The notes under the pieces: model-generated
What the model was told of the DNA's origin: nothing
Seen by the model: only the letters and a program-made list of their open reading frames with translations
Database searches by the model: none
Translations under genes and position numbers: made by a program
Part shown: one piece after another, positions 3,785 through 54,105 of the stretch
Layout of the letters: each line of letters begins with the position of its first letter
Position numbering within the stretch: position 1 is the stretch's first letter
NCBI GenBank assembly: GCA_026874595.1
Contig: CM049315.1
Location: forward strand, 12,586,664-12,650,663
Length of the DNA: 64,000 nt
Source of the DNA: Sipunculus nudus
Taxonomy: Eukaryota; Annelida; Sipuncula; Golfingiida; Sipunculidae
Direction: 5' to 3'

Positions 3785-4804
3785 ATGCTAACCGCGCATT
3801 TAAATGATATGGCAGGGGAGGTGAAGATGAAGACGGAAATAGAGTCGCCATCTATCGGCAAGGCCGGGTATGAAATTTTCTCAGACGAACTTTCTCATTC
3901 TACGTTTGTTCAGGCGCATGGACTGATACAGAGGCTTGTCTCTGTAACACACGCCAATTACCAGGATCACCTTGCAAGTTTGTCAGACACACGAGAAAAT
4001 GAATTACATCGCCCTCTTGTGTCCGACAAGGTCGGCGACTGGCGCCCACTAACGCCAGAATCTGACGTTTCTTTGGAGACTGATCCAGGGCTGGTTTCCC
4101 CGGACTCCGAGACTCCTGGCTTCCTCGGTTGTGCGGGTTGCTGCATGCCTATCAGTGAGCGCTATATTTTACTCATGAACGGACTTCTATGGCATGAGAA
4201 TTGCTTAAGATGTTGCGAGTGCGGGGCTGAACTTGTATTACATGGCAAGTGCTACGTTAAAAACGGTCAAACTTACTGCACACATCATTACAATGAAATG
4301 TACGGTCCTCACTGTGCCAGATGTGACCGCGTGGTGGCGCCTTCAGACTGGGTGAGGCATGTCGGTGATCACGTATACCACGTGACGTGTTTCACGTGCT
4401 GTGTCTGCGCAAGGTTACTCAGCTCTGGTGACCATATTGTGCTGGTGAGTAGCGGGGTTAGTTGTGCTTCACACTGCATGATACAGTCAACAGGGATATC
4501 AGACATTGTTATGGCCAGTTCGCCGGACGAAACAGCAGATGAGGTTGAAACTAAAGTTACAAAAACTGTGCTGCATCAACGCGTCAGAATCCCAGGGATG
4601 GACATTCAAAAGTGCAACATAAGGAACAGACGATCACGCACTACTTTTACGCAGGAGCAGCTAGACGCACTGCAGGACGCGTTCAACCGTCACACCAACC
4701 CTGTCGGACGCGCCCTGCAGGCCATCGCTCAGTCGGTGGGGCTCAGCAGGCGTGTCACCCAAGTGTGGTTCCAGAACGCCAGGGCGCGCCACCGGAGGCG
4801 GTAA
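3785..4804 (+). CDS. Intronless LIM-homeodomain transcription factor, type A (Lhx6/8-like)
   Basis: A 339-residue nuclear DNA-binding protein in one uninterrupted frame. LIM1 (residues about 116-168) has the ordered zinc ligands C116, C119, H137, C140, C143, C146, C165 and H168. LIM2 (about 177-230) has C177, C180, H199, C202, C205, C208, C227 and H230. LIM domains bind cofactors such as the LDB/CLIM proteins. The homeodomain starts near residue 281 and keeps R5, W48, F49, Q50 and N51. The protein ends at about homeodomain position 59, so there is no C-terminal tail. The phrase SDWVR in LIM2 and LSRRVTQVWFQN in helix 3 match the Lhx6/8 (Arrowhead) group better than Lhx2/9 or Lmx; this comes from recalled family features, not a search. 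Residues 1-110 are acidic and Ser/Thr-rich. The start is the first Met of the frame; a second Met lies at residue 9. LIM-HD genes normally have several introns, so the open frame suggests a retrocopy origin. Decayed relatives of its homeodomain recur through the array. Confidence 0.9.
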   Translation: MLTAHLNDMAGEVKMKTEIESPSIGKAGYEIFSDELSHSTFVQAHGLIQRLVSVTHANYQDHLASLSDTRENELHRPLVSDKVGDWRPLTPESDVSLETDPGLVSPDSETPGFLGCAGCCMPISERYILLMNGLLWHENCLRCCECGAELVLHGKCYVKNGQTYCTHHYNEMYGPHCARCDRVVAPSDWVRHVGDHVYHVTCFTCCVCARLLSSGDHIVLVSSGVSCASHCMIQSTGISDIVMASSPDETADEVETKVTKTVLHQRVRIPGMDIQKCNIRNRRSRTTFTQEQLDALQDAFNRHTNPVGRALQAIAQSVGLSRRVTQVWFQNARARHRRR

Positions 4805-4904
4805 CGAACCGCCAAGAATAGTGGTACATTTGATATTTGAGTGTCGCTTATCATAATAACTCATTTGTTTATATGCTACATTTGTCATTTTAATTTATTT
4901 TCCA

Positions 4905-4956
4905 AATAAACATATTTAGATGCATTGAACCATTATTTTTTCATTGAGCCAATAAA
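4905..4956 (+). promoter_or_regulatory. Poly(A) signals of the type-A gene
   Basis: Two AATAAA hexamers, at 4905-4910 and 4951-4956, lie 100-150 bp after the stop codon and give a short 3' UTR. Confidence 0.6.
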
Positions 4957-5245: not shown

Positions 5246-5292
5246 TACGGAAGCGTATTGCTGCCACCTGGTAAAAGAAAAATAAATTATTT

Positions 5293-6496: not shown

Positions 6497-7460
<964 letters not shown>

Positions 7461-12097: not shown

Positions 12098-12147
12098 TAA
12101 TTTATTTTTCTTTTACCAGGTGGCAGCAATACGCTTCCGTAGGATAG

Positions 12148-13571: not shown

Positions 13572-13619
<48 letters not shown>

Positions 13620-14049: not shown

Positions 14050-14696
14050 TCAGAATTTATGTTCAGGTTGTGATGGCTGTATAACAGACCGCAACAGTCT
14101 ACAGGTGAACGGACTCCTGAGGCATGAGACATGTCTGCGATGTTGTGAATGTCACTTACAGCTTGGTTACCATGGCAAGTGTTAGGTCGAGGACGGCAGG
14201 ATTTACTGTAAACAGCATTACCGGGAGATGTACGGTGTCCGTTGTACCAAGTGTGACCGCGTGGTGGCGCAGTCTGACTTAGTTCATCACGTAGGTCGTC
14301 ATGTCTATCACGTGACATATTTTTCTTGTAATACAAGTGGACTTTTATTATATACAGGCGCACAGTTTTCAGTACAGGGATCTGATCTGATATGTTGTGA
14401 TCACGCAGGCCATTCGTCAATCTCGGGACTGACGAGTTTAACACGGAGGAGAGCAACCAAGAGATCAGCTTTCGACGACCCAGGGAGCCCCAAGAAACCC
14501 AAGTCTAAGCGTCTGAGAACACAATTCATGCACAGACGAACAAGTCGAGCTTCTCAAAGAGGAATACAAACAAGAAACCAACCCTGTCGGAAGCGACCTT
14601 GAGCGGATCGCGCTGAAGGTCGGCCTCAATCGGCGCGTCACACAGATCTGGTTTCAGAACGTACGTGCACGGGACAGGAAACAACAGAGTAAATAA
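14050..14696 (+). pseudogene. Degenerate type-B LIM-homeobox pseudogene
   Basis: Homologous to residues about 175-387 of the intact type-B protein. The promoter remnant joins directly to LIM1, so the N-terminal acidic half is missing. A TAG replaces the Tyr codon after 'GGC AAG TGT' in LIM1 (near 14183). Several LIM2 residues have changed. A small insertion near 14527 shifts the frame at the start of the homeodomain, and the WFQN helix-3 sequence survives only in another frame. The 3' end and poly(A) region still match the other copies. It is the most diverged type-B copy and is clearly non-functional. Confidence 0.9.
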
Positions 14697-15872: not shown

Positions 15873-16721
15873 TCCCTTTGGATCTGTGTTTAAAGAAAAA
15901 AAATGGTGCGAGTGTACGAAATTTTATAATTGATTTTTATTTGTATCGGCCAAGACACAATGCTTGGAACCCTGCAAGCCAACCAGGGAAAATAAAAAAA
16001 TTAAATGTATATAATGCGTGAAGGGTAGTCCATTTCCATAACTTCAAATTATCTCTTAATTACCTGAGGTATAGCAGCACAAGTTAGCATAATTACTGAA
16101 GACCTGGTTCTCTCTTGTAAAACAAATATATGCCAGTGGAAAGTCCAATCCCTAATAAACAAAAAAAAAATAAGTCAGACCAGTTTCACATCCATGGTTT
16201 AAAGGTGTTTTGTGTCAAGTTAATACAACCATGGAACATACTTTTGATCTGCGGGAAACATCGAAAGCACTCACCAGTCTGCATTTCACTGTTTTCTTTC
16301 AATTAGAATTTTAATTTCTTTATATCCTAAAATTTGAGTATATATTATATTTGTATCCGTATAATCATTTGTTTCCTTGGAGTACAAATCAATTTTAATC
16401 TCTGCAAGTTTTGGCTTGTATTATAGTTTGTATTATAGAATAATATTTCAAAATATATGTTAACTATTGCAAGCGTTTTGTATTGACGATGTGGAAACAG
16501 GTTATCATAGATGCACTTATTTGGAAAGTGAATCTCTCAAAACGTCCGATATGACCCAATTCTTGTGTTCGTCTTTAAATTTAACCTTCTGGGATTAAAA
16601 GAAATCTGATCGGGTGTGTTTGTGTTTAAATCTGTTTACGTTATACTTCCTGATGCAGGCGACAGGAATAACATATAACATTATCAGCAGCGTCTGAATC
16701 AACAATCGACGTACAAAGGAG
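15873..16721. other. Conserved array spacer
   Basis: AT-rich spacer shared with about 24420-25278, 32690-33544, 45820-47621 and 58290-60038. No gene. The distal units carry an extra 0.94 kb insertion within it. From about 16640 it may be the diverged remnant of the type-A gene upstream of the homeodomain (compare 4470-4560), but similarity is weak. Confidence 0.55.
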
Positions 16722-17003
16722 AGTTACAAAAACTGTGCTGCATCAACTAGTCTAAATCCGAGGGATGGACATTCAAAAAGGTAAAACGAGGAACAGACGA
16801 TATCCGATCACAACTTTTACGGAGTAGAGGAACAGCTGGGCGCGCTGCAGGACTCGTTTAACCGTCACATCAACCCAGTCGGACGAGCCCTGCAGGCCGT
16901 CGCTCAGTCCGTGGGGCTCAGCAGGCGTGTCACCAAGTGTGGTTTCTGACCGCCAGGGCGCGCCACCGGAGGCGGAAAGGAACCGCCAGAATAGTGGCAC
17001 ATG
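16722..17003 (+). pseudogene. Type-A homeodomain relic 1
   Basis: Aligns to the type-A gene at about 4553-4832: the linker, homeodomain and start of the 3' UTR. An insertion within helix 1 (ACGGAGTAGAGGAACAG) creates a stop. A one-base loss in the helix-3 GTCACCC run, together with CTGACC in place of CAGAAC, destroys WFQN. No LIM domain remains upstream. It lies about 1.45 kb before the next type-B gene. Confidence 0.9.
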
Positions 17004-17411: not shown

Positions 17412-17477
<66 letters not shown>

Positions 17478-18039
17478 AATTTAAAAAAAAATTGATATGC
17501 AATATTCTTTACCGTTTATATGTCTAATCTGAAAATATATTTCCGTCAATATGTCTAATCCTATATTGTATTTATGTTAATATGTCTAGTCCTATATAAT
17601 TTATTCCCCATAATATGTTTAATCCTATATTCTATTTCCGTTAAGATGACTCATTTTCAAGGACAGGGTGTGTCATACACCTATTATCTATTATTGAATC
17701 GTTCAAGACGGCATATTTTATTCCTGTACAGTGTTACGAAGACAAATTGTTAGGGGGAAAATTTTGGGCCGTTCCGGGATTCGAACCCATAACGGCTTTG
17801 GATTTGTATATTCAGTATGAGATGTGATCGCCTCCCATTTCATAAACGTATCCGGAAACAACATTGTTTTCTAAATCTGTTCTAGTAACAGACATCTGAC
17901 TCACCATCATATAATCAAGATATCCCTAAATTTAAGGCTGCAAGTTTATGAATGACACGTCTAAACCTAGGCCTCTGTACCCAGTCTAAACCCTGTCGTC
18001 CAATACTGAGCTGTCAGCAGAGTACCGAGCACACTGATT
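17004..18039. other. Spacer with (TA)n tract and 37-bp minisatellite
   Basis: No gene. It holds an (AT)n tract at about 17417-17476 and, at about 17515-17650, four degenerate units of roughly 37 bp containing ATGTCTAATCCTATATT. The segment about 17170-17490 is missing from the units at 25.7 and 33.99 kb, and parts of the rest recur at 47.9-48.3, 50.6-52.1 and 60.3-60.7 kb. Confidence 0.6.
17774..17790 (-). other. tRNA-like B-box motif (SINE or tRNA remnant)
   Basis: The minus strand reads ATGGGTTCGAATCCCGG, a textbook Pol III B-box with T-loop. Copies lie at 26024-26040 and 34289-34305. No convincing A-box, acceptor stem or anticodon arm pairs with it, so I do not call a tRNA gene. The equivalent site in the 52.2 kb unit has been replaced. 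Confidence 0.35.
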
Positions 18040-18455
18040 GTAGTACTTACTCCAGTCTCATTAGACTCACTATCTAACAACTGTTAGTTGTTTGCAGTAA
18101 ACACTTAAGTGAATGTGACAAACATCCAATTAGTTGTCCGCACCCACAGTGCTTTCATTCTCTGCAGTAAAACACTTGAGTAGAATAATTAACCCCCTGT
18201 AATCACTCAAGCGTCTCTGAGTGGTACTCGCGTTCACGCTGCCCTGACCACGTGAGCAGTGTCACAAGTGATTACGTGTCAATGAGTGAGCACCTGTCAA
18301 CATTACTCAGTACCGGTACTTAAACCTCATACATCTGCTCTCAGCATCATACCTACCACCGCCCACGGTCCACGGTTCTCACAGACTCGCTTCAATCCAG
18401 ATAAAAATACTACAGGGTTAACTATAAAAGTAAAATTTGAGAGAAATTTATCATA
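18040..18455 (+). promoter_or_regulatory. Promoter and 5' leader of type-B gene 1
   Basis: A block of about 415 bp kept almost unchanged before every full-length type-B copy. Visible elements are CACTTAAGTG (18102-18111), CACTTGAG (18173-18180) and CACTCAAG (18204-18211), all resembling NK2-class homeodomain sites; the E-box CACGTG (18249-18254); and the palindrome AGTACCGGTACT (18309-18320), followed by TTAAACC. No canonical TATA box is obvious. The start codon at 18456 has A at -3. The site assignments are inference from consensus matches. Confidence 0.6.
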
Positions 18456-19619
18456 ATGTTTGCCGGAGAGATAAGCTTGTCGCCCCAGAAGGCAAGGAAC
18501 GACGCTTCCTTTGTAGTAGATGAGCTTTCTGACTCGCTGGTGTTACAAGGATTTAATCACATCGAGGACCTTTTGAAGATGGAGTTTTCTAATGAGGAAC
18601 CACTGCCAGCTAAATGTGACGATCTTTTAGCGACCGCCATGTACCAGCACATTCTGACGGACGGAGCTACGGAACCAGACGAACCCGTCAACCAACTGCC
18701 GCCATGGTATCCACTCACACCCGAGTCGCAAACTGTCTCGGGAGTGACGTCAGAGGTAACACCAGAGCATCATGATGCCGTCCCCGTGGTGACGTCAGAG
18801 ATTCAAGATGACGGTATAACTCACATTCACGCTCATTTCCGGATGCAGCAGCTACAAGAAGCAGACGACCTTCCCTGTTCTCTGGATGACCTTGTACCAG
18901 AAACCCTCCACAAAGAAACATGTTCTGTCATAGAGCCAGTGACAGCGCCACCATCCCCGGTGGTCGTGATCCGTAGTCAGAATTTATGTTCAGGTTGTGA
19001 TGGCTGTATAACAGACCGCTACATTCTACAGGTGAACGGACTCCTGTGGCATGAGACATGTCTACGATGCTGTGAGTGTCACTTACAGCTTGGTTACCAT
19101 GGCAAGTGTTACGTCAAGGACGGCAGGATTTACTGTAAACAGCATTACCGGGAGATGTACGGTGTCCGTTGTACCAAGTGTGACCGCGTGGTGGCGCAGT
19201 CTGACTTAGTTCATTACGTAGGTCGTCATGTTTATCACGTGACATGTTTTTCGTGTACTACATGTGGACGTTTATTATCTACAGGAGAACAGTTTTCTGT
19301 AGAAGGATATGATGTGATATGTAGGGATCACGCAGGCCATTCGTCAATCTCGGGACTGACGAGTTTAACACGGAGGACAGCAACCAAGAGATCAGCTGTC
19401 GATGACCCAGGGAACCCATTGAAACCCAAGTCTAAGCGTCTGAGAACACAATTCACGGACGAACAAGTCGAGCTTCTCAAAGAGGAATACATACAAGAAA
19501 CCAACCCTGTCGGAAGTGACCTTGAGCGGATCGCGCTGAAGGTCGGGCTCAGTCGGCGCGTCACACAGATCTGGTTTCAGAACGTTCGTGCCCGGGACAG
19601 GAAACAACAGAGTAAATAA
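18456..19619 (+). CDS. Intronless LIM-homeodomain transcription factor, type B, copy 1 (Lhx6/8-like)
   Basis: 387-residue nuclear DNA-binding protein in one open frame. Residues 1-170 are acidic and contain short TSE(V/I)QD(D/E)-type repeats, plausibly a regulatory or activation region. LIM1 spans about 178-230 with ligands C178, C181, H199, C202, C205, C208, C227 and H230. LIM2 spans about 239-292 with C239, C242, H261, C264, C267, C270, C289 and H292. A basic linker precedes the homeodomain (about 326-385), which keeps R5, W48, F49, Q50, N51 and R53 and ends in a short QQSK tail. The LSRRV.Q.WFQN..RAR signature fits Lhx6/8. The start is the MFAG Met, the only candidate present in all full-length copies; the upstream ATG of later copies is ATC here. 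Compared with copies 3 and 6 it lacks a 7-residue VQDEVSE block. The stop is followed by a conserved 3' flank and a poly(A) signal at 19978. Confidence 0.92.
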   Translation: MFAGEISLSPQKARNDASFVVDELSDSLVLQGFNHIEDLLKMEFSNEEPLPAKCDDLLATAMYQHILTDGATEPDEPVNQLPPWYPLTPESQTVSGVTSEVTPEHHDAVPVVTSEIQDDGITHIHAHFRMQQLQEADDLPCSLDDLVPETLHKETCSVIEPVTAPPSPVVVIRSQNLCSGCDGCITDRYILQVNGLLWHETCLRCCECHLQLGYHGKCYVKDGRIYCKQHYREMYGVRCTKCDRVVAQSDLVHYVGRHVYHVTCFSCTTCGRLLSTGEQFSVEGYDVICRDHAGHSSISGLTSLTRRTATKRSAVDDPGNPLKPKSKRLRTQFTDEQVELLKEEYIQETNPVGSDLERIALKVGLSRRVTQIWFQNVRARDRKQQSK

Positions 19620-21818
19620 AATAGACTTTTTGAATTAACAATGAAATACCCGTACTTTGATGTAATACAAAGGGGACTGTGATTATTTCTTTGATACTGA
19701 CTACCTAATGTGCTTAATATATTTACATGTTTTTGTAACTTCATCTGCCGTTTCATTCTTGATATTTATAGAAATACCAAAAGCCTATCGTTTGTACCCA
19801 GCCCAGTTTCGTCTATTATCCGACATATCATAATCACACTTATCATTCTTTAATTAACTGTCATTTCATTTTGAATACTACATTAATTGTATATATCTCG
19901 TTTTTCTTACATATTCAATTTTGTTATATTAATTTAATTTATAAATTATAAATATTTTATGTTTATATGTAAAATTGAATAAACTTTATTATCACGTATG
20001 TATGGTCTTCTCCGTTCTTTGTTTTAGGAAGAATTAGGATCCAATTTTAAGATGACCGTTCATCACTTTTTAATTTAAGTGTGTCTCGTGCGTGTTTAAA
20101 CTTTCTAAACTGAACAACGGTGGTCATGGCATGATCGACTGTACGGATTCCTGGCTTCCATCCTAACCCACGTCACTAAAACCGTAGGGAAAAGCGAATG
20201 TATAAACAAACAATACTAAAACATGTTTTATGTAGTCACGTCAACTAATTATCCGTGCCGTTTCGTCACTCCGCATCAACGGCCTGTCGCAGCTCTACGA
20301 CTCGCTTTTCGAACCCGTAGCGCCATCCAGTGGTTATCGGTAGCGAGTCACGAAACTGTCGTCAGAAGATGACCGAAGTTACTGCGTATGACAAGTGTTC
20401 TTCTAAACTACTATTGTGCAACTATATGAAGACGCACAAGAACAAGCAGAAAAAAACTTCTTACTTGAATGTTAAATTACAGCCACATATCATCAAGGAT
20501 ATAGGATGTTGTAGAAGACATAGGGAATGTTATGATATCAGACAGATGTTGTAGGTGGGCAGCTTGATTATTAATTGACTCATTTAAATTTTAGAATTAA
20601 TTTGTTTTCTGACTCTCTCGTATTATAATAAATGAAAAAAAAATCCCATCAGAGCCTCTGGATGACTGTTATCCAAAAATGTATTAGTTACTTATAAATC
20701 GTAATAAGATTTTAAAATGGTCTTTGCGAATTTATCCAGATACCGGAATACAAACCTCTCAAGGCGCGCTCAGATCGCAAATTATTTCATTCATCATGAT
20801 TAATGCCAGGTTGGAAGCACGGTATTGGGTTAAAGAAAGCAATAAATAAATACAAGACGCTGGCGGAGATGTTCTCTCTAATTGTGTTCTGGATGAAATA
20901 AGGCGGAGGTGTTACCTCTCAGAGTGCGCTCGATAAATTCCAGGCTCTTTTTTTCTTACAAGTAGTATGCATGTATTTTTGATGAGAAAATATTGAAATA
21001 CACATTGGAAGTAACCCATTAACTTAAAGGGGACCAATCACCTATTTAGCATGTTGAATTAACACAAAAAAATAGCTTCTTCCCTTTCAAATAAATGTTT
21101 ACCTGCCAAAACATGGCCCCGAAACCGTTTGCTTACTCCCGTAAACGAGTGTTAAAAACAGTGGACCGGGCGCGATCAAAGGTGTCAACATAAACATAGC
21201 ACGTGGGACACTGTGCATCGCTGAACAACAACACCTGCCAATTACGTAAAACCCTGACTGACTTGGCTGCAAAATGTTTTACATGTTACCGCCAGCTGAA
21301 AATTTGTGTGTTGCGGCTCACAATCGGACTTTCGGTCACGCGGACCTGTTATGGTAAACAGACACCCGTGGCCTGTGTTTAAAAAAACACACAGAGCCAT
21401 AACTGTGAGATGGGATGGTATTGCTTGGATACATTTGTATAAAGCAAAACTGAACTGATAGTGTGAAAGATGGACATAATATTACTCCTGATTATGTCCC
21501 TTATCTCCCATCATATTATTTTCAAATTAAATTTAAAATGTATGTTCTATACCAATGGGGTAATTGCCCGGGATGATATTTGTCTGAGGGAAAATTGTCT
21601 TCGGGGTAATCGACGGGAGGGGGGGGGGGGTTCAAATTGTCCGGGGGGTGGGGGTAATTGTCAGGGGGCTAATTTGTGTCGGGGGTAGTTCTCCAAGGGG
21701 GGGGGGGGGGGGTTCTATGGGATAATTGTCCGGGGGTCAGTTGTCCGAGATCCCTTTGGATCTGTGTTTAAAGAAAAAAAAATGGTGCGAGTGTACGAAA
21801 TTTTATAATTGATTTTTA
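19620..21818 (+). other. 3' flank of copy 1
   Basis: Holds the poly(A) signal AATAAA (19978-19983), a 74-codon open frame at 20330-20554 of uncertain meaning, the dispersed GGACCAATCACC repeat (about 21030-21400) and the G-rich minisatellite (about 21546-21750). It ends at the duplication junction. Confidence 0.65.
20330..20554 (+). other. 74-codon open frame repeated after type-B copies
   Basis: The same frame is open at 28589-28813, 42683-42907 and 54811-55035, but stops early in the flanks of the truncated copies (near 23173 and 31441, where GGA reads TGA). The product is Lys- and Cys-rich with no motif I recognise. Its first 165 bases are identical between proximal and distal units while the 290 bases upstream differ at about 15 places. 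The few differences inside are amino-acid changing, which argues against a conserved peptide. It could be chance or a conserved non-coding stretch. Confidence 0.2.
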
Positions 21819-22290
21819 CCGGGAGATGTACGGTGTCCGTTGTACCAAGTGTGACCGCGTGGTGGCGCAGTCTGACTTAGTTCATTACGTAGGTCGTCAT
21901 GTTTATCACGTGACATGTTTTTCGTGTACTACATGTGGACGTTTATTATCTACAGGAGAACAGTTTTCAGTAGAAGGATATGATGTGATATGTAGGGATC
22001 ACGCAGGCCATTCGTCAATCTCGGGACTGACGAGTTTAACACGGAGGACAGCAACCAAGAGATCAGCTGTCGATGACCCAGGGAACCCATTGAAACCCAA
22101 GTCTAAGCGTCTGAGAACACAATTCACGGACGAACAAGTCGAGCTTCTCAAAGAGGAATACATACAAGAAACCAACCCTGTCGGAAGTGACCTTGAGCGG
22201 ATCGCGCTGAAGGTCGGGCTCAGTCGGCGCGTCACACAGATCTGGTTTCAGAACGTTCGTGCCCGGGACAGGAAACAACAGAGTAAATAA
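21819..22290 (+). pseudogene. Truncated type-B copy 2 (LIM2 plus homeodomain)
   Basis: Begins mid-gene at the microhomology junction. From the first Met (21826) it is open for 154 codons and matches residues 234-387 of copy 1, with an intact LIM2 and intact WFQN homeodomain. The promoter, acidic region and LIM1 are missing. Directly upstream is AT-rich and G-rich repeat sequence. Probably not expressed as a normal gene, although a LIM1-less protein could arise from read-through or chance transcription. Confidence 0.85.
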
Positions 22291-33544: not shown

Positions 33545-33826
33545 AGTTAAAAAAACTGTGCTGCATCAACTAGTCTAAATCCGAGGGATGGACATTCAAA
33601 AAGGTAAAACGAGGAACAGACGATATCCGATCACAACTTTTACGGAGTAGAGGAACAGCTGGGCGCGCTGCAGGACTCGTTTAACCGTCACATCAACCCA
33701 GTCGGACGAGCCCTGCAGGCCGTCGCTCAGTCCGTGGGGCTCAGCAGGCGTGTCACCAAATGTGGTTTCTGACCGCCAGGGCGCGCCACCGGAGGCGGAA
33801 AGGAACCGCCAGAATAGTGGCACATG
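33545..33826 (+). pseudogene. Type-A homeodomain relic 3
   Basis: Near-identical to relic 2, lying 8,266 bp after it, with the shared helix-1 stop and broken helix 3. It reads GTCACCAAATG at the helix-3 deletion. Confidence 0.9.
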
Positions 33827-35463: not shown

Positions 35464-35851
35464 TTTATTACTTTATGTCACAAATGAAGAAATACCGGAT
35501 GTTTTAGTGATTATTCATGATTAACTGACAAACAAAGAGTCGTCATTTGTAAATTGCGTCACAAGATACTTCTCAGAATCAACCACCTGTGACAGGTATG
35601 TTATACTTTTAATGATTCCTGTACCTCGAATGTGTTATTACCTACACCTGGCTGTTAAAATAATGGACTTATGGTTGCAAACCCTGAGAGCAGGAACTTC
35701 AATATCAGTTTTGTTTTCGCAGTGTGTGCTGCTTATTGTAACCCGGGCCTTTATTTGAACGACCGAGACTTTCCAAAATTGCTGTGTATCAACTGTCAGC
35801 TAGTTGCATCTAGCAAATCAAACAGTAGCCCACAAGTATGTTTTCTGATTT

Positions 35852-37458
35852 ATGATTCGCTCGGAAGGAGTACTTCACATATTAACTTTACCAGCCTGTG
35901 AAGGCGCGTCGGCGAACCATTGTCTGGTCAAAAGCCCTGATCCTTGTACTCCTTTTGATCCCTTAAACCCGCGGATGGCTGCCCAACGTGTGAGTGGTGC
36001 TATTGCCGAGGCTTTGGCCGCTGTTAACAACGGGGACTATGACGATTGTGAAATGGAACAAACCTGCTCTATCACAGATATGTTGCTGGTTGAGCTGACT
36101 GGTCTCCCAAAAGACCAATTTATTAAGAAATTGATTAACCAGTCTGATGAAATGCAATTAACATTGAACACTTTCGTGACCACCTTTTTGATATGGCGAA
36201 ATTACAGCAAAACTTTCCTGGGGGTAAACTTATCAAACGACTAAAGTCTAGAAACAAACCTTGCAATGACTATGAAATAAAATTGGCCAGTGATTGTTAT
36301 ATTCTGTACCATTTTACGAAAGGTGGGACCCCAGACTCCGTTAAAGAAGTTCTCAGCGGTCACTCTAGTCGACAAAGAACGGTCAGTGTTTCAACGCCTC
36401 GAAATAAAGATTCAGTGAACTCCTCTGCTGGTCGTATTCTGCCGGATATAGACCTGAATGCTCACAATAGGTTGGAAATTATTCGTCTCAACAGTACTTG
36501 TGATCAGCTACAAAACACCTGTAATGTCAGATACGACTATCTATCAAAACACGTAGACAGTGTAAATGATCTGCTTAAAGAAACGAGGACTGCCCTAGAA
36601 GACTACAAATATTATATGCAAAATAAAATTGACAAAGTAAGCGCTGCCTTGAATGACCAAACAGAGGCCATTCTTACTCTAAACGGAAAACTTGACTCCG
36701 TAATCGTTCGCCAGGAGGAACTCCAGGGTAATAAGGAAAGGAGCCGGGCTGAAATGAATAGACATGCCTCCGAACGACGTCAGATTCAGGCGACAATTCG
36801 AGAAATTGAATACAACGTCAAAGAACTGTCTGAAAAGTCTGCCGCCTTTGCGCGTTCTCTTACGGATCTCAGATCTCGCATGACTCAAACTAATGGTGCT
36901 CAAATAATGTCTGCTTCATTTGCAAGAGTCGCATCTAAGCCACCATCTCCTACTGTAACAAGAAAGACAATAGGAACCAGTACGGGGGGATCTGATTCTC
37001 CATCAAGGCAAGGAGGTAACGTACGAGAGGACACAAATGAGGCTCCAGCTCCTGCATCTGTTGAACGTTGCGCGGAAAACGTTACCCCTGTTCGAACAGG
37101 AAATGCCGAAATCAGCTCTCAAAGGAATACATTCATCGGGCCGCAAGAGGAAGGTTCATCCTCATCCTCAGCAGGTGATGACATTCCCGTATTAACCTCA
37201 CGAAGACGTGATCATAACATAAACTCTGTGTTCTCTGAATATCATATCGGTAACATTGAAAAACATGTAAGTGTGAAAAGGGTGACAAACCATATTATAG
37301 CTAGAGGAGTCCATGTGTTCAGTGTAAAGCTTCTGAGGAGCAAAAACATGCGCTACAACGGATGTTACTTGAAAGTACATAATTCAAGCTGCAGGCTTGT
37401 AGAATCAGGTAGCATTTGGCCGCAAAATGTATACGCCAGACCCTGGGTTAATAGATAG
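35852..37458 (+). pseudogene. LINE ORF1 (coiled-coil nucleic-acid-binding protein), frameshifted
   Basis: Two overlapping frames: 35852-36244, then 36193-37458 (421 codons), offset by a shift near 36150-36190. An earlier frame (35671-35901) with a CAAYC and later Cys residues may be a further broken N-terminal part. In the 421-residue frame, residues about 95-232 are strongly heptad-like and charged (coiled coil, probably for oligomerisation). Residues about 237-340 are Ser/Thr-rich. The C-terminal 75 residues, ending in a WPQNVYARPW phrase, resemble the conserved end of many invertebrate LINE ORF1 proteins. Role: RNA-binding particle protein in retrotransposition. Confidence 0.8.
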
Positions 37459-37538
37459 TGAGCAAAGGAATTTTGTGGTATGTACCCTTTCACTGATTCA
37501 TTGTCTGAGTATTCTGTTGACTGCCTTTCACATCCATT

Positions 37539-40500
37539 ATGTACAATCATTCATATCTTGTAAACAATATAACAATTGCCTGTTATAATGCTCGTGGAAT
37601 TATGGCAAGTTTCGCATTTGTTGAAAATCTTTTAAACCGTTACAAACTTGACATTTGCTGTGTAACTGAACACTGGCTATTCCCCGATTCTTTGCAATTC
37701 TTGTCAACATTCCACGAGGATTACCAGGTACACGCTGTTGCTGATTCCTCTCTTGACCCATATGACATGTACAGGCGGGGTAAGGGAGGGGTAGCCCTTT
37801 TCTGGCACAAACACCTGTCAGGTATAATCTCCCCAGTAGATAACCTGCTTGACGATCGAATTGTTGGTATCTGTGTTCGCCCCGAGCATGGTCCATGTAT
37901 TTTCATATTTGCAGTCTATATGCCGAGCTCAAACCACGGAGTCCAATTATTTAAAGAATATACTGAAAAATTACACATCATTTATGAGGAATATTTGAGT
38001 AGCGATATTGTGGTGATGCTAGGCGACTTTAATAGTGAAGTGACGGGCACAAGATACGAAGTCCCAAATCACTTAGAACTAGTGTTATGCAATCTTTTCT
38101 ATGTGAACACGATCTTATTTCTCAGACTGCCGATTCTCTTTGCGGTGGTCCACTTTATACGTTTGATCCATACTCTGACGGTTCCAACCAATCGTTAATT
38201 GACCACGTTATTTTACCACGTGACCAGCTCCACTTGGTCGAACATTGTGAAGTGTTAGATTGTAGCCTTAATACTTCCGACCACCTGCCTGTGGTGACAA
38301 GATTAAAAATACCTCAAAGGCACAAATCCAAAAGTAGATTACACTCTCCTAATTGGTCAAAACTCGCGTCAGAGAAAGAACTGCAAAGACGTTATGCTGC
38401 GATTTGCTAGGTGAGCTTGATAAAATAGCTGAACCAAACCCAGAAGACTGTACTGTCTCTGCCATCAACCAATATTATTCAGATATTGTCAAGGCCCTTC
38501 AAAATGCGGCGTCTAATCTTCCTTTAAAACAGTTTAAATCTTTCCTACGACCTGGCTGGAAAAGTAAATTAAAGCCTTCTTATGATGAAATGAAAAGATT
38601 GAGGAGAGTCTGGATAGTAGATGGTAAGCCACGCGGTCACTCCTCTAAGTCTTATAGCGACTACAAAGAAGCGAAAGCCATTTTCGAAGGCACATGAGAC
38701 ACTACCACACCTCTAAAGATCGAATAGAATTTGAGAAATTGGATCAAGCCGCTGAACTCGATATAAATAAATTCTGGCAACTGCTCAACAAAAAAAGAAG
38801 AATTAAAGCGAATCTGAATAATGATATGTCTTTTAATGGTATTACAACAAACGATCCAATTATTATTTGTGAGAAGTGGGCAGACTATTTCGAGGAGTTG
38901 TACTCCTTTCAGACAAATTCCTTTTATGACGTAAATTTCAAAACTAAAGTAACTGAAAAATGTAAACGATTATATAAAGAGTCTAAAAGAAATAAAGCGG
39001 GAGTATTAGATGATAAATTCACGAAATTAGAAATAAAAAACAGTATTAAACAACTTAAAAACAGAAAGGCTCCTGGTCACGACAGTATTATGAATGAGGG
39101 GATATTTGGAATATAAAATTTGGCGGGGATATGATGATCAATCATCTTGAAAACTTATTCAATTCCATTAGAAAAACGGAAACTATGCCAGAGTGCATGA
39201 AGATAGGTATAATTGTAACAGTACCAAAGGATAAAACCAAAAGTCGTACCAATCCAGACAATTATAGAGGAATAACCTTGCTGCCGTGTATATATAAAAT
39301 TATTGAAAATGTTTTGCACTCTCGTTTTAATAAATATATTACCATGTCAGGAATAGCTTTTCCTGACCCCATGCAGTTTGCATTTCAAAAAGGTACAGGC
39401 GCACTTAACGCATCCCATTGCCTGCTGGAATGCATTTGTCACAATCTCGAGCGGCAGTCCCTAGTTTACTGCTGCTGTCTCGACAGTAGCAAAGCCTTTG
39501 ATCATATCTGGCACCACGGTTTATTCGTGAAATTATATAAAATGGGAATCGATGGGAAATTATGGAGGATTTTATTTAACGTGTACACAAAAATGACAGC
39601 GAAAATTTTATACCAGGACAAAACCAGCAGAAAGATTCCAATTACTCAGTCTGTCCGGCAGGGGGGGGAGTACTGTCGCCACTTTTATACTTAATTTTTA
39701 TTAATGATCTCTTGAGGGAACTTAGAATTCTTGGCGTTTGGGCCAAAATAGGTGATATATTTACAGGATGTCCCACTCAGGCAGATGACATTGCACTGCT
39801 GGCACTCACGCCTTCTGATCTCCAATTAATGATTGACACATGCGTTGCGTATTCTAATAAGTGGAGATTTGTATTTAATACTACAAAGACCGTTATTATT
39901 ACTTTTGGTGAAAGTGAAAGGATGTATAATCTGAGAAGCCCTCATCGCTTTTGGAGATTAAACAATGAGACGATAAAGCAAACCCGAAGTCATAAGCATC
40001 TCGGTATTTTATTAAATGCAAGCATGTCCTCCATTGATCGGACGAATGAAGCATGCAGAAAGGGCAAGGGATCATTCATGGCATTAGCAGAATCAGGTGT
40101 TCGGCCGTATGGTTTAAATCCCCTGACGGCTATAAAACTGTATAAGACAATGGTCCTCCCGAGGGCTCTGTACGGGGCAGAGTTATGGTGGTCATTGACC
40201 GTGCAAGAGTACTTAATTCTGGAACGAATGCACAGGCTTTGCATTAAAAATGCGCAGATGATGCACCCTCGAGTTCGGTCGGATTTAGCTCAGAGTCTGG
40301 TCGGCATGCCGAGACTGGAAGCGTTCATTGACCGCATGAAACTTTTATTCCTTGGAAGGATATGTAACAACAATAACATTTCAAAATCCATTCTATGGAT
40401 GCGCGTAATTAGTGGCAGCTTTTGTAATCTGCCAATATACGGGTTTGCAGCGGACATAATTTCAATTCTGAAAAAGTATAACCTCGAAAACTTTTTAATT

Positions 40501-41065
40501 AACTGGTTAGGCGACTTACAGTTTCCAAACAAATTGTCATGGAGCCGTATCGTAACTGAAAAGCTAGTTTCCATGGAAACTGACTTATTTCTCCAAAGAA
40601 CAAATCTTTTTAAGTTTAACATGTTACGTGAAGTAAAACCTTCCTTTCTTCAGCCATCCATCCTCTGGTTATATTCAAGGGATATCCCTGCATCATACAA
40701 TATATTTTCTTAAACTGCTATCATTCTATGGCTGTATAGACATTAGGAACGAATTATTTCTTTGTCATTTATGCGGCAAACTTTTCCACAATCCGGTCCA
40801 TCATGTAGTAATAGAATGTGATATGACAAAAACAGAAAGAGATTCCATGTGGGATTTCATTATTGATAACTTTAGTGTACACATAAGCACTTACCTCTTC
40901 AACTTAGATGACTTCTCGTTTATCGCTACTCTACTTGGAAAACCTCTCCCTGATATGTCGCGGGAGGACATGGTCTCACTTTCGTATAGGGCTGGTTTAA
41001 TGCTTAGGAATATGAAGCCAACCATTGAGTCGTTGTGGCCGAAAATTACATTCAGTAATGAGTAA
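37539..41065 (+). pseudogene. LINE ORF2 (AP-endonuclease and reverse transcriptase), multiply frameshifted
   Basis: Pieces in order: 37539-38198, an apurinic-type endonuclease with CYNARG, TEHW and LGDFN motifs; 38087-38410, continuing in another frame with LIDHV and SDHLPV, the C-terminal catalytic part; 38353-38697 and 38694-39116, the linker and start of the RT (APGHDSI); 39131-39694, RT with NYRGITLLP, LDSSKAFDHIW (motif A) and QSVRQGG (motif B); 39712-40713, after a slip in a G-run near 39661, with QADDIALLA (motif C); 40823-41065, the C-terminal end, preceded by a CxLC-like phrase near 40760. Each break is an ordinary one- or two-base shift. The enzyme would nick target DNA and copy the RNA in place; this copy cannot. 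Confidence 0.92.
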
Positions 41066-41327
41066 TTATTTTTGTGTTTTCCGCTTCAATTTACCTTGAT
41101 GTCAATTAATATCTTGGTTTAATGACACGAAATGTCTACATGAATATGCATATGAATTATACTATTTTTTTTATTAGATTTTATTGTATTTTAATTTCAT
41201 CTTAATGTTGTGTGTTACAATTTCATTCTGTATTGCCGTCTGATGGCGCATTCTCATTATAAGAAAATTGATTGTACTCTTCAATTCATTGGAGGCAATA
41301 AAGAAAATCAATCAATCAATCAATCAA
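41066..41327 (+). other. LINE 3' UTR and (AATC)n tail
   Basis: AT-rich 3' UTR ending in GGAGGCAATAAAGAAAATC repeated as AATC about five or six times. A simple-repeat tail replaces poly(A), as in several LINE clades. Confidence 0.85.
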
Positions 41328-41977
41328 TCATAGAGCCAGTGTCAGCGCCACCATCCCCGGTGGTCGTGATCCGTAGTCAGAATTTATGTTCAGGTTGTGA
41401 TGGCTGTTTAACAGACCGCTACATTCTACAGGTGAACGGACTCCTGTGGCATGAGACATGTCTGCGATGTTGTGAGTGTCACTTACAGCTTGGTTACCAT
41501 GGCAAGTGTTACGTCAAGAACGGCAGGATTTACTGTAAACAGCATTACCGGGAGATGTACGGTGTCCGTTGTTCCAAGTGTGACCGCGTGGTGGCGCAAT
41601 CTGACTTAGTTCATGATGTGGGTCGTCATGTCTATCACGTGACATGTTTTTCGTGTACTACATGTGGACGTTTATTATCTACAGGAGAACAGTTTTCAGT
41701 ACAAGGATATGGACTGACAAGTTTAACACGGAGGACAGCAACCAAGAGATCAGCTATCGATGACCCAGGGAACCCAATGAAACCCAAGTCTAAGCGTCTG
41801 AGAACACAATTCACGGACGAACAAGTCGAGCTTCTCAAAGAGGAATACATACAAGAAACCAACCCTGTCGGAAGTGACCTTGAGCGGATCGCGCTGAAGG
41901 TCGGGCTCAGTCGGCGCGTCACACAGATCTGGTTTCAGAACGTTCGTGCCCGGGACAGGAAACAACAGAGTAAATAA
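41328..41977 (+). pseudogene. Type-B copy 5, 3' part (LIM domains and homeodomain)
   Basis: Resumes at the right target-site duplication and encodes LIM1, LIM2 and homeodomain to the normal stop. An in-frame 14-codon deletion (near 41712) removes the end of LIM2, including its last two zinc ligands (the C-x-x-H of the CRDH phrase) and the GHSSIS linker. The homeodomain, including WFQN, is intact. It reads CSKC and CLTDRY like copy 6, not CTKC and CITDRY like copies 1 and 3. A frame is open from 41210 inside the LINE, so a LINE-initiated transcript could encode a fusion. Confidence 0.92.
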
Positions 41978-43904: not shown

Positions 43905-45586
43905 TGTATCCGCCAAAACAGAGTTTTGCGGATACTATGTTTTCAGCTGCACGCCGCCGCCGCCGCCGCCGCGGCGTAGGTGTCCGGATAACTCCTCCGT
44001 AACCGCTGGGCGGAATTTTACGAAACACGGGATTATGTTCGGGTCACATGTGAACTGCTGCGCCCCGATTTTGTTTTGACCTCTGACCTTTCCTCTGCGC
44101 TCCGCGTCCGTTTGTGCGTCTGTTTCCACACATAAACCCACATATCTCGGGAACCGTTTGACCGATCAGGAAATTTTTTTTTACACAAATGTAGCCCTTG
44201 GAGAGCTTTATAACATACACAAAAAATGGTGGCGCCACCTGCAACCATGTTTGCACAGTGTCCATCTGTTCGTCTGCCTTTGGTTAAAATCACTCATATC
44301 TCTGCAGTGACTAGACCAATTCACCTGAAATTCGGCATGCGTAAACATCCTGGATAGCTTTTCTGACTTTATGACAGGTGGCGCCACCTACATTCACGTT
44401 TACGCTGCAGACATCCAAGCTCATATCTCGGGAACCGTTTGACCGATCAGGAAAATTGTTTTGCACAAATGTAGCCCTTGGAGAGCTTTATAACATACAC
44501 AAACAATGGTGGCGCCACCTGCAACCATGTTTGCACAGTGTTCATCTGTTCGTCTGCCTTTGGTTAAAATCACTCATATCTCTGCAGTGACTAGACCAAT
44601 TCACCTGAAATTCGGCATGCGTAAACATCCTGGATAGCTTTTCTGACTTTATGACAGGTGGCGCCACCTACATTCACGTTTACGCTGCAGACATCCAAGC
44701 TCATATCTCGGGAACCGTTTGACCGATCAGGAAAATTGTTTTGCACAAATGTAGCCCTTGGAGAGCTTTATAACATACACAAACAATGGTGGCGCCACCT
44801 GCAACCATGTTTGCACAGTGTTCATCTGTTCGTCTGCCTTGGGTTAAAATCACTCATATCTCTGCAGTGACTAGACTAATTCACCTGAAATTCGGCATGC
44901 GTAAACATCCTGGATAGCTTTTCTGATTTTATAACAGGTGGCGCCACCTACATTCACGTTAACACTGCAGACATCCAAGCTCATATCTCGGGAACCGTTT
45001 GACCGATTGGGCCAAAATTTTGCATGTGTATAGATCTCACATAGCTCTTCATCATACGCAAAACTGGTGACGCCACCTGCAGCCATTTTTGCACAGCTCC
45101 TGTCTGTCTGCCATGGGATAAAATCACTCATATCTCGGCAGTGGTTTGACATATCTGCCTAAAATTTTGCAGGTTTATACATCCCCGACAGCTCTCTTGA
45201 TTTTATGACAGGTGGCGCCACCTGCATTCTAGTTTATGCAGCAGACATCCAAGCTCATATCTTGGGAACCGTTTGACCGATTGGTGGCGTCACCTGCAAC
45301 CATTTTTGCTCAGCGTTCATCTGTTTGTCTGCCACGGGCTAAAATCACTCATATACATGTAGTGCTTTGACTTATCTGCCTTAAATTTTGCATATGTATA
45401 CAACTTGGACGGCTTTCTGGATTTTGTGGTATGGGGGGAAACCTACATACACAATTTGGCTGCAGACATCCATGCTAATATGCAACACTCAATTTTCCCT
45501 TGCCACTCAATCCATGCCTCACTTCACCCGTTCCACTCTGATTTAGGCGGATACACGTAGTCGCTTGTCGACTACCCGTATTCTAG
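43905..45586 (+). mobile_element. Helentron/HINE ('pearl')-like element with 280-bp internal repeats
   Basis: Comparison with the empty sites in the proximal units (for example about 15629) gives exact ends: host CATATTAT, then element, then TTTCAAATT, with no target-site duplication and insertion between two T residues. The 5' end TGTATCCGCC recurs inverted as GGCGGATACA at 45546-45555, followed by a hairpin (GTAGTCG, five-base loop, CGACTAC, 45557-45575) and a CTAG end. Asymmetric inverted repeats, a 3' hairpin, T|T insertion and central tandem repeats are the known features of non-autonomous Helentrons, including bivalve pearl elements. No Rep/helicase is present. A (CCG)n tract lies near 43953-43975. 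Confidence 0.72.
44142..45320. repeat. 280-bp tandem monomers
   Basis: Five monomers with ATATCTCGGGAACCG near 44142, 44423, 44703, 44983 and (diverged) 45257. Each carries the 12-bp palindrome GGTGGCGCCACC or a variant. The first three are nearly identical and the last two more diverged. Confidence 0.92.
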
Positions 45587-47247: not shown

Positions 47248-47621
47248 TTTGTATCCGTATAATCATTTGTTTCCTTGGAGTACAAATCAATTTTAATCTC
47301 TGCAAGTCTTGGCTTGTATTATAGTTTGTATTATAGAATAATATTTCAAAATATACGTTAACTATTGCAAGCGTTTTGTATTGACGATGTGGAAACACAG
47401 GTTATCATAGATGTACTTATTTGGAAAGCGAATCTCTCAAAACATCCGATATGACCCAATTCTTTTGTTTGTCTTGAAATTTAACCCTCTGGGATTAAAA
47501 GAAATCTGATCGGGTGTGTTTGTGTTTAAATCTGTTTACGTTATTCCTCCTAAAGCAGGCGTCAGGAATAACATATAACATTATCAGCAGCGTCTGAATC
47601 AACAATCGACGCACAAAGGAG
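47248..47621. other. Array spacer
   Basis: Matches 16348-16721 and its equivalents. No gene. Confidence 0.55.
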
Positions 47622-47900
47622 AGTTACAAAAACTGTGCTGCATCAACTAGTCTAAATCCGAGGGATGGACATTCAAAAAGGTAAAACGAGGAACAGACGA
47701 TCTCCGATCACAACTTTAACGGAGGAACAGCTGGGCGCGCTGCAGGACGCGTTTAACCGTCACACCAACCCAGTCGGACGAGCCCTGCATGCCGTCGGTC
47801 AGTCCGCAGGGCTCAGCAGGCGTGTCACCAAGTGTGGTTTCTGACCGCCAGGGCGCGCCACCGGAGGCGGAAAGGAACCGCCAGAATAGTGGCACATGTA
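47622..47900 (+). pseudogene. Type-A homeodomain relic 4
   Basis: The least damaged helix 1: it reads ACGGAGGAACAG without the stop-bearing insertion of relics 1-3. It shares the helix-3 base deletion and the CTGACC change, and has private changes (CATGCCGTCGGTCAG, TCCGCAGGG). The shared helix-3 lesions imply one ancestral inactivation. Confidence 0.9.
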
Positions 47901-52490: not shown

Positions 52491-52914
52491 ACTGATTGTA
52501 GTACTTACTCCAGTCTCCAGTCTCATTAGACTCACTATCTAACAACTGTTAGTTGTTTGCAGTAAACACTTAAGTGAATGTGACAAACATCCAATTAGTT
52601 GTCCGCACCCACAGTGCTTTCATTCTCTGCAGTAAAACTCTTGAGTAGAATAATTAACCCCCTGTAATCACTCAAGCGTCTCTGAGTAGTACTCGCGTTC
52701 ACGCTGCCCTGACCACGTGAGCAGTGTCACAAGTGATTACGTGTCAATGAGTGAGCACTTGTCAACATTTCTCAGTACCGGTACTTAAACCTCATACATC
52801 TGCTCTCAGCATCATACCTACCACCGCCCACGGTCCACGGTTCTCACAGACTCGCTTCAATCCAGATAAAAATACTACAGTGTAAACCATAAAAGTAAAC
52901 TTTGAGAGAAATTT
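52491..52914 (+). promoter_or_regulatory. Promoter of type-B copy 6
   Basis: Near-identical to the other type-B promoters: CACTTAAGTG, CACTCAAG, CACGTG and AGTACCGGTACT are all present. The duplicated phrase CTCCAGT near 52508 is a local slip. Confidence 0.6.
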
Positions 52915-54105
52915 ATGACAATGTTTGCCGGAGAGATAAGCTTGTCACCCCAGAAGGCAAGGAACGACGCTTCCTTTGTAGTAGATGAGCTTTCTGACTC
53001 GCTGGTGTTTCAAGGATTTAATCACATCGAGGACCTGTTGAAGATGGAGTTTTCTAATGAGGAACCACTGCCAGCTAAATGTGACGATCTTTTAGCGACC
53101 GCCATGTACCAACACATTCTGACGGACGGAGCAACGGAACCAGACGAACCCGTCAACCAACTGCCGCCATGGTCTCCAGTCACACCCGAGTCGCAAACTG
53201 TCTCGGAAGTGACGTCAGAGGTTCAAGATGAGGTCTCCGAGGTAACACCAGAGCATCATGATGCCGTCCCCTTGGTGACGTCAGAGATTCAAGATGACGG
53301 TATAACTCACATTCACGCTCCTTTCCGGATGCAGCAGCTACAAGAAGCAGACGAACTCCCCTGTTCTCTGGATGACCTTTTACCAGAAACACTCCACAAA
53401 GAAACATGTTCTGTCATAGAGCCAGTGTCAGCGCCACCATCCCCGGTGGTCGTGATCCGTAGTCAGAATTTATGTTCAGGTTGTGATGGCTGTTTAACAG
53501 ACCGCTACATTCTACAGGTGAACGGACTCCTGTGGCATGAGACATGTCTGCGATGTTGTGAGTGTCACTTACAGCTTGGTTACCATGGCAAGTGTTACGT
53601 CAAGGACGGCAGGATTTACTGTAAACAGCATTACCGGGAGATGTACGGTGTCCGTTGTTCCAAGTGTGACCGCGTGGTGGCGCAATATGACTTAGTTCAT
53701 CATGTGGGTCGTCATGTCTATCACGTGACATGTTTTTCGTGTACTACATGTGGACGTTTATTATCTACAGGAGAACAGTTTTCAGTAGAAGGATATGATT
53801 TGATATGTAGGGATCACGCAGGCCATTCGTCAATCTCGGGACTGACGAGTTTAACACGGAGGACAGAAACCAAGAGATCAGCTATCGATGACCCAGGGAA
53901 CCCAATGAAACCCAAGTCTAAGCGTCTGAGAACACAATTCATGGACGAACAAGTCGAGCTTCTCAAAGAGGAATACATACAAGAAACCAACCCTGTCGGA
54001 AGTGACCTTGAGCGGATCGCGCTGAAGGTCGGGCTCAGTCGGCGCGTCACACAGATCTGGTTTCAGAACGTTCGTGCCCGGGACAGGAAACAACAGCGTA
54101 AATAA
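52915..54105 (+). CDS. Intronless LIM-homeodomain transcription factor, type B, copy 6
   Basis: 396 residues from the first ATG; the conserved MFAG start is at 52921. LIM1 (about 187-239), LIM2 (about 248-301) and homeodomain (about 335-394) have all zinc ligands and WFQN. It differs from copies 1 and 3 at scattered sites: LVFQGF for LVLQGF, CLTDRY, CSKC, AQYDLVHHV, TETKRSA, AIDDPGNPMK, QFMDEQ and a C-terminal QQRK. None touches a zinc ligand or the helix-3 core. It is closest to the 3' half of copy 5. The poly(A) signal is at 54462-54467. This is the only full-length type-B gene of the distal array in the window. Confidence 0.92.
   Translation: MTMFAGEISLSPQKARNDASFVVDELSDSLVFQGFNHIEDLLKMEFSNEEPLPAKCDDLLATAMYQHILTDGATEPDEPVNQLPPWSPVTPESQTVSEVTSEVQDEVSEVTPEHHDAVPLVTSEIQDDGITHIHAPFRMQQLQEADELPCSLDDLLPETLHKETCSVIEPVSAPPSPVVVIRSQNLCSGCDGCLTDRYILQVNGLLWHETCLRCCECHLQLGYHGKCYVKDGRIYCKQHYREMYGVRCSKCDRVVAQYDLVHHVGRHVYHVTCFSCTTCGRLLSTGEQFSVEGYDLICRDHAGHSSISGLTSLTRRTETKRSAIDDPGNPMKPKSKRLRTQFMDEQVELLKEEYIQETNPVGSDLERIALKVGLSRRVTQIWFQNVRARDRKQQRK

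What the first reader, a model, noticed from the sequence alone, without database searches (positions are those of the whole stretch)
3785..54105. Expanding tandem array of intronless Lhx6/8-like LIM-homeobox genes
Four intact single-frame LIM-HD genes (one type A, three type B), one LINE-split copy, two truncated copies, one degenerate copy and seven type-A relics lie in 60 kb on one strand. LIM-HD genes are normally single-copy, multi-intron developmental regulators (established). Loss of introns followed by serial duplication with the promoter is unusual for this class and resembles other fast-evolving homeobox arrays. It may be an unrecognised lineage-specific homeobox cluster.
Basis: partly seen in the sequence, partly recalled or inferred. 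Interest (0 to 1): 0.88.

Follow-up and report, generated by a model that had tools for sequence, protein, structure and literature searches.

The report
Intronless LIM-homeobox gene array
In this animal, which also keeps the ordinary intron-containing Lhx6/8 gene on another chromosome, an intronless copy of that developmental regulator has spread along one chromosome and built up a row of tandem copies, some intact and some broken.

Summary
The finding is real. The window holds four intact single-frame LIM-LIM-homeodomain genes (A1, B1, B2, B4), one split by a LINE (B3), two truncated and one degenerate. Two more intact genes (B5, B6) lie within 13.3 kb beyond the window; three further intact relatives lie elsewhere on chromosome C10. 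An intron-bearing Lhx6/8 gene sits on C5. In a LIM1+LIM2+HD tree the nine intact intronless proteins form one clade (100/99) that groups with it (99/96). All 16 zinc ligands and the main DNA-contact residues are invariant in the nine. dN/dS is 0.26-0.28 against a dispersed copy but 0.59 within the array, so selection was real but looks weaker now. Best reading: an old Lhx6/8 retrogene, shortened behind the homeodomain and kept as a transcription factor, amplified with its promoter by unequal exchange. No expression data were available; function is inferred. The genome is lophotrochozoan. Intronless amplifying homeobox arrays are known (DUX4); ten library searches listed none for the LIM class.

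The parts
3785..4804 (+). A1: intact intronless type-A LIM-LIM-HD gene, 339 aa
   Evidence: open frame, Pfam LIM and HD, in the array clade of the tree
14051..14693 (+). degenerate type-B copy, stop inside and frame change before HD
   Evidence: tblastn
16675..16946 (+). type-A relic (linker and homeodomain, frame-shifted)
   Evidence: tblastn E 1.3e-22
17487..25736 (+). 8.25-kb tandem unit, first copy (B1 + truncated B + A relic)
   Evidence: self-blastn 17487-27218 vs 25737-35463 at 98.8%
18456..19619 (+). B1: intact intronless type-B LIM-HD gene
21772..22290 (+). truncated B copy (LIM2 + HD), by-product of a 2.67-kb inner tandem duplication
   Evidence: open frame; 19145-21818 vs 21816-24487 at 99.1%
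25232..25503 (+). type-A relic
   Evidence: tblastn
25737..33987 (+). 8.25-kb tandem unit, second copy
26691..27878 (+). B2: intact intronless type-B LIM-HD gene
30037..30555 (+). truncated B copy (LIM2 + HD)
33498..33769 (+). type-A relic
   Evidence: tblastn
34936..35464 (+). B3, 5' part, cut by the LINE
35465..41327 (+). non-LTR retrotransposon (LINE: endonuclease and reverse transcriptase in broken frames; TCAA-type 3' tail) in B3, flanked by an about 30-bp near-identical target-site duplication
   Evidence: junction; Pfam Exo_endo_phos and RVT_1
41328..41977 (+). B3, 3' part (LIM1 + LIM2 + HD)
44141..45481 (+). 280-bp satellite that recurs with the larger unit
   Evidence: TRF, self-blastn
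47575..47870 (+). type-A relic
   Evidence: tblastn
52915..54105 (+). B4: intact intronless type-B LIM-HD gene
56266..57944 (+). 280-bp satellite, second array
   Evidence: TRF
59992..60287 (+). type-A relic
   Evidence: tblastn

Best explanation
An Lhx6/8 (Arrowhead) transcript was reverse-transcribed and inserted into chromosome C10 long ago. The intronless copy was retained as a LIM-homeodomain transcription factor without the part behind the homeodomain and with its own N-terminal region and promoter; it gave several old lineages (A1, B, D12, D39). An A+B pair was then amplified in tandem by unequal crossing-over and gene conversion, with promoter and 3' flank, while extra copies decay (truncation, LINE insertion, stops). 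Mechanism proposed: the proteins bind the same TAAT-type sites as Lhx6/8, contact LIM cofactors, and act where their own promoter is active, as divergent partners or competitors of Lhx6/8. Shown: ancestry, absence of introns from the coding frame, intact domains, past purifying selection, sequence exchange in tandem. Inferred: retroposition as the route, site preference, cofactor binding, time and place of expression.
For: Nine intact intronless proteins are one clade (100/99) grouping with the genome's own Lhx6/8 (99/96), apart from Isl, Lmx, Lhx1/5, Lhx2/9 and Lhx3/4; an HD-only tree agrees (96/94; reference HDs recalled). The parent on C5 has LIM1, LIM2 and HD on separate exons with GT at the LIM1 and LIM2 exon ends and AG before LIM2 and HD; array genes on C10 read straight through those places. 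16 of 16 zinc ligands and HD residues R5, W48, F49, Q50, N51, R53, A54, R55 are invariant in 9 of 9 (numbering recalled). Pairwise dN/dS of the five intact B genes against D23 is 0.26-0.28 at dS 0.34-0.37; codon ML omega 0.369 over six genes (2 delta lnL 43.4 against omega 1) and 0.59 over B1, B4, B5, B6 (2 delta lnL 4.96). In CDS pairs 0 of 12 pairwise indels break the frame; in flanks 74 of 84 are not multiples of three (pairs not independent). B1 and B2 show 0 differences from +600 to +2600 of the ATG but 19 in the 576 sites compared in the first 600 columns. AlphaFold: ten-residue means 70-90 over the LIM part and 91-94 over the HD.
Against: No expression data. The founding insertion's poly(A) tail and target-site duplication were not searched for. 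Within the array omega is only weakly below 1; B4-B5 is 1.02 on 13 differences, and B4-B6 and B5-B6 are 0.67 and 0.62. In the tandem cluster 6 gene copies are intact and 10 are broken (4 B copies, 6 A relics). The order among A1, D12, D39 and B is unresolved (branches 64/0 and 70/54). The promoter block shared with D23 (79 of 100 columns) is only a little above what dS 0.37 would leave at unconstrained sites. The whole structure model is poor outside the domains (mean pLDDT 54.1, pTM 0.32).
Confidence: 0.77

Rival explanations
1. Mostly neutral amplification: one or two copies matter and unequal crossing-over or transposable elements multiply the rest with little effect, as has been suggested for Hox-gene duplications in moths.
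For: Many broken copies beside intact ones; omega near 1 in the youngest pair; LINE, 280-bp satellites and a dispersed ~480-bp repeat inside units; precedent described in PMC7618685 (passages).
Against: The three distinct indel events among intact B genes all keep the frame; omega 0.59 within the array is below 1, though only at 2 delta lnL 4.96; of nine B copies in the tandem cluster five are intact.
Confidence: 0.4
2. Assembly artefact: the most similar units are two haplotypes joined in one contig.
For: The two 8.25-kb units differ by only 1.2%, within allelic range for many marine invertebrates (recalled).
Against: Larger units differ by about 3.5-6%, and A1, D39 and D12 share only 39-43% identity with B2, so an array remains without that pair.
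Confidence: 0.08
3. These are the conventional Lhx6/8 orthologues that lost introns in place.
For: They belong to the Lhx6/8 branch.
Against: A conventional intron-bearing Lhx6/8 is present on another chromosome, with a homeodomain nearly identical to Drosophila Awh as recalled.
Confidence: 0.01
4. DNA-level duplication followed by stepwise loss of introns, not retroposition.
For: No insertion scar of a retrocopy has been shown.
Against: No intron is left between LIM1 and HD in 9 of 9 genes of the clade, and the clade sits on a different chromosome, while 7 of 7 conventional LIM-HD genes found kept theirs.
Confidence: 0.08

Closest known systems
Lhx6/8 (Arrowhead) LIM-homeodomain genes
   Same: Two LIM domains and a homeodomain of Lhx6/8 type; the main DNA-contact residues of the own parent are kept.
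   Different: No introns in the coding frame, ends 1-16 residues behind the Pfam homeodomain boundary, tandem and dispersed copies on C10. The parent's N-terminus was not found, so the N-termini were not compared.
DUX4/Dux arrays of mammals (PMC3004920, passages read)
   Same: Intronless homeobox gene, attributed to retroposition, amplified in tandem with the frame inside each unit.
   Different: Double-homeobox genes, not LIM class; units here are irregular, few and mixed with broken copies.
Spiralian SPILE/TALE duplicates (PMC8524836, passages read)
   Same: Recent tandem duplication of near-identical homeobox genes in some molluscs.
   Different: TALE class; the word intron does not occur in that text; expression in embryos is known there, not here.
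Oyster Awh1 and Awh2 (PMC5322547, passages and part of a table read)
   Same: A lophotrochozoan with two Lhx6/8-family genes; the second might be a relative of this clade.
   Different: Gene structure and relationship not given in what I read; no array seen there.
Earthworm LIM-class expansion (PMC4758240, one passage read)
   Same: Lineage-specific duplication of LIM-class genes (18 duplications in six of nine families).
   Different: The words tandem and Lhx6 do not occur in that text.

Membership tests
LIM-homeodomain class | two LIM domains followed by a homeodomain | tested here: met
   Pfam in 5 of 5 proteins scanned; 16 of 16 zinc ligands invariant in 9 of 9
Lhx6/8 (Arrowhead) subfamily | groups with Lhx6/8 apart from the other five subfamilies | tested here: met
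   99/96 with own-genome genes; HD tree with recalled human and fly sequences
Lhx6/8 (Arrowhead) subfamily | being the single conventional, intron-bearing Lhx6/8 gene of the genome (orthologue rather than extra paralogue) | tested here: not met
   nine intact intronless genes beside one multi-exon gene; they are filed as extra paralogues, not as the orthologue
processed retrogene | introns of the parent absent | tested here: met
   coding frames against parent exons; UTRs not testable
processed retrogene | unlinked to the parent | tested here: met
   C10 against C5
processed retrogene | poly(A) tract and target-site duplication of the founding insertion | not tested
   the ends of the founding insertion were not defined
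tandem fast-evolving homeobox array | head-to-tail units with exchange between copies | tested here: met
tandem fast-evolving homeobox array | expression in early embryo or germ line | not testable with these tools
   no transcript data

The most novel reading that the evidence does not exclude
The LIM class has its own DUX4-like system: a retroposed Lhx6/8 lineage that became a fast-turnover array of transcription factors which keep the parental DNA contacts and cofactor domains but lack the part behind the homeodomain, and act in the early embryo or another new setting, partly by competing with the parental gene.
Probability: 0.2. Interest if true: 0.82.

Novelty: new variant of a known kind. 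Interest (0 to 1): 0.63.

Why it matters
LIM-HD genes are described as one gene per subfamily in fly and worm and two in mammals (PMC2828406, passages). A retroposed, amplifying LIM-HD lineage beside an intact parent shows that even this conserved class can give rise to unstable arrays, as other homeobox classes do. Copies of graded age, intact and broken, with parent and promoter in hand, make it possible to test whether such arrays are kept by selection or by mutation pressure.

Tried and rejected
Seven A relics: sensitive tblastn gave five in the window, two more at E 0.8-8, and outside the window one clear relic and one weak place. LIM frames on C127 and C119 looked like further single-frame LIM genes, but no homeodomain is visible in their translations and an HEXXH-type region follows in the same frame (C119) or a neighbouring one (C127) (not scanned with Pfam); they were dropped. 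A shared core promoter across A1, B, D12 and D39: TTAAA or TATAA occurs 110-150 bases before the ATG in 5 of 5 sequences read, but such short words are expected by chance at about that rate, so I make no claim. Naming the organism: Hox signatures give a lophotrochozoan (signatures recalled); no match to the mollusc haemocyanin beta-sandwich family (whose controls rang nowhere) and 24 C1q matches at E 1e-12 or better among 150 candidates scored of 203 do not decide between phyla, so 'bivalve' is a guess. The structure model adds only that LIM and HD parts fold; no fold search was run. In the HD-only tree the A1 row carried one stray residue at its start; the tree was aligned by MAFFT, but the identity table printed for A1 is out of register and was not used. 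An earlier count gave '0 of 13' and '52ish' for indels; recounted it is 0 of 12 in CDS and 74 of 84 in flanks (some upstream gaps are alignment ends).
Full report
What is in the window. Stop-to-stop reading shows single-frame LIM-homeodomain genes on the + strand: A1, B1, B2 and B4 intact, B3 in two pieces, and two 172-aa truncated copies. Pfam finds LIM and homeodomain matches in all five proteins scanned, each with two LIM stretches. A tblastn of A1 and B2 over 108.6 kb of chromosome C10 (window plus flanks) places a degenerate B copy at 14051-14693 and A-type relics at 16675, 25232, 33498, 47575 and 59992 in the window and one more beyond it. The split in B3 is an insertion between two near-identical copies of an about 30-bp target sequence, with a TCAA-type tail; its frames carry endonuclease and reverse transcriptase domains, in pieces, so it is a LINE.

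Where the rest of the family lies. The window is C10:12586664-12650663 of a 1.43-Gb genome in 153 contigs. Whole-genome searches with B2 and A1 (30 and 35 matches; only the best candidates are scored, so these are lower bounds) add B5 and B6 directly to the right, a broken B-like copy at 12.548 Mb, a fragment at 12.451 Mb, and three intact dispersed genes: D12 (12.296 Mb, - strand, 374-aa frame), D23 (23.64 Mb, 376-aa frame) and D39 (39.35 Mb, 371-aa frame). All members of the intronless family that were listed are on C10; the other matches are exons of conventional LIM-HD genes or large zinc-finger homeobox genes on C5, C7, C11 and C12. That makes nine intact intronless genes: A1, B1, B2, B4, B5, B6, D12, D23, D39.

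The parent. C5 carries LIM1, LIM2 and homeodomain at about 6.509, 6.507 and 6.503 Mb, - strand, 2.1 and 3.2 kb apart (288 bases in the second gap were not fetched), with GT at the ends of the LIM1 and LIM2 exons and AG before the LIM2 and homeodomain exons. Its homeodomain is nearly identical to Drosophila Awh as I recall it. The same genome has two Lhx2/9, one Lhx1/5, one Lhx3/4, one Lmx and one Isl among the matches read; in these seven conventional genes LIM1, LIM2 and homeodomain are always in separate places (7 of 7). The array genes read through the corresponding places without a break.

Phylogeny. A maximum-likelihood tree of LIM1+LIM2+HD from own-genome sequences only (16 rows, 180 columns) puts the nine intronless proteins in one clade (100/99), which groups with own Lhx6/8 (99/96). 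The order among A1, D12, D39 and the B group is not resolved, and the Lmx row is incomplete with a long branch. A homeodomain-only tree with eight recalled human and fly sequences agrees (96/94 for the clade, 97/98 with own Lhx6/8 and Awh), but the program warns of long branches.

Protein features. In the alignment of the nine, 16 of 16 LIM zinc ligands are invariant, as are R5, W48, F49, Q50, N51, R53, A54 and R55 of the homeodomain; residue 47 is V or I, and 52 varies (numbering and roles recalled). The proteins end 1 to 16 residues behind the Pfam homeodomain boundary, whereas the frame of the C5 gene runs on about 90 residues past its homeodomain to the first stop, part of which may be intron. 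AlphaFold gives ten-residue means of 70-90 over the LIM part and 91-94 over the homeodomain, and below 50 for residues 1-182 and 304-337 (mean 54.1, pTM 0.32).

Selection. Pairwise dN/dS (Nei-Gojobori) of the five intact B genes against D23 is 0.26-0.28 with dS 0.34-0.37; within the array it runs from 0.30 to 1.02. A codon model gives omega 0.369 for B1, B2, B4, B5, B6 and D23 (lnL -2556.74 against -2578.44 at omega 1) and 0.590 for B1, B4, B5, B6 (lnL -2039.62 against -2042.10). Among intact B coding sequences 0 of 12 pairwise indels break the frame, against 74 of 84 in flanking stretches that are not multiples of three (pairs are not independent, the distinct CDS events are three, and some upstream gaps are alignment ends). 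A substitution-only simulation leaves 28% of frames open after 31 changes, 5.8% after 70 and 0.65% after 146, the last being about the B-D23 difference. So the lineage was maintained by selection; for the youngest copies the evidence is weak.

Duplication process. Two 8.25-kb units are 98.8% identical; an inner 2.67-kb duplication (99%) made the truncated copies; larger units of about 11-12 kb differ by about 3.5-6%. B1 and B2 do not differ at all from +600 to +2600 but differ at 19 of 576 sites in the first 600 columns, and B6 is a mosaic, near the array upstream and divergent in the middle of its coding sequence. That is what unequal crossing-over or gene conversion leaves. Upstream sequence (about 640 bp) is shared by all five intact B units, and about 200 bp are recognisable at D23, with 79 of 100 columns identical in the two best 50-column blocks, which is only a little above what dS 0.37 leaves at unconstrained sites. 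A dispersed repeat of about 480 bp lies in the units and occurs on many chromosomes.

Organism. The Hox run on C12 includes a Lox5 with KLTGP, Lox4- and Lox2-like genes, Post2 and Post1 (10 homeodomains fetched; names from recall), so the animal is a lophotrochozoan. It may be a bivalve; that is not shown.

How it most likely works. Shown: intact DNA-binding and LIM domains, kept by past selection, in an array that exchanges sequence. Inferred: retroposition, because no parental intron is left in a clade on another chromosome; binding to Lhx6/8-type sites, because the main contact residues are unchanged; contact with LDB-type cofactors, because the LIM domains are intact; altered activity, because the part behind the homeodomain is gone. 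Timing is unknown. In the oyster, lophotrochozoan-specific homeobox genes peak early or late in development (PMC5322547, abstract and passages), which is what I would expect here.

Comparison with print. DUX4 is the nearest parallel in process (PMC3004920, passages), and SPILE genes in molluscs in taxon (PMC8524836, passages). A tandem Lhx cluster in Trichoplax joins different subfamilies and is read as a remnant of an ancient arrangement (PMC2828406, passages). The oyster has two Lhx6/8 genes, Awh1 and Awh2 (PMC5322547, table part). The Hong Kong oyster and Biomphalaria papers, seen in passages only, mention no LIM-class array in those passages. Ten answered searches of the held library listed no paper whose title or abstract start tells of an intronless or tandemly amplified Lhx6/8 array. 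Several of them showed only the top of a longer list (for example 25 of 112 and 15 of 210), and most subscription papers and all preprints were out of reach, so this is not proof of novelty.

Noticed in passing
G000:C11:62039473-62066858 and G000:C3:7088754-7112342: Two more clusters of homeodomain matches in long open frames: five on C11 (223-307 aa frames) within 27.4 kb on both strands, four on C3 (337-505 aa frames) within 23.6 kb; possibly other homeobox arrays.
   Followed up: no
G000:C5: Five of the seven conventional LIM-HD genes found (Lhx2/9 twice, Lhx3/4, Lhx6/8, Lmx) lie on one chromosome, recalling the ancient linkage described for Trichoplax.
   Followed up: partly
G000:C5:88.028-88.102 Mb: Two Lhx2/9 genes lie tail to tail on opposite strands, their first homeodomain exons about 41 kb apart.
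   Followed up: no
L073 and L074 (small contigs C127, C119): LIM-domain frames of 343 and 362 aa with an HEXXH-protease-like region in the same frame (C119) or a neighbouring one (C127), on contigs of 110,647 and 155,172 bases; perhaps from an associated bacterium.
   Followed up: no
window 5292-5521 and 11845-12095: Two 21-bp minisatellites whose units are reverse complements of each other, inside an inverted repeat (5246-6075 against 12141-11306, 78.7%) between A1 and the degenerate B copy.
   Followed up: no
G000:C12:56.36-58.77 Mb: Hox run from Hox1-like to Post1-like over 2.4 Mb; no Antp-like (Hox7) homeodomain among the ten fetched, but only 150 of 321 candidates were scored, so absence is not shown.
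   Followed up: partly
L071:894-4193 (window scale 79530-82829, beyond the window): Satellite with a period of about 335-345 bp to the right of B6.
   Followed up: no
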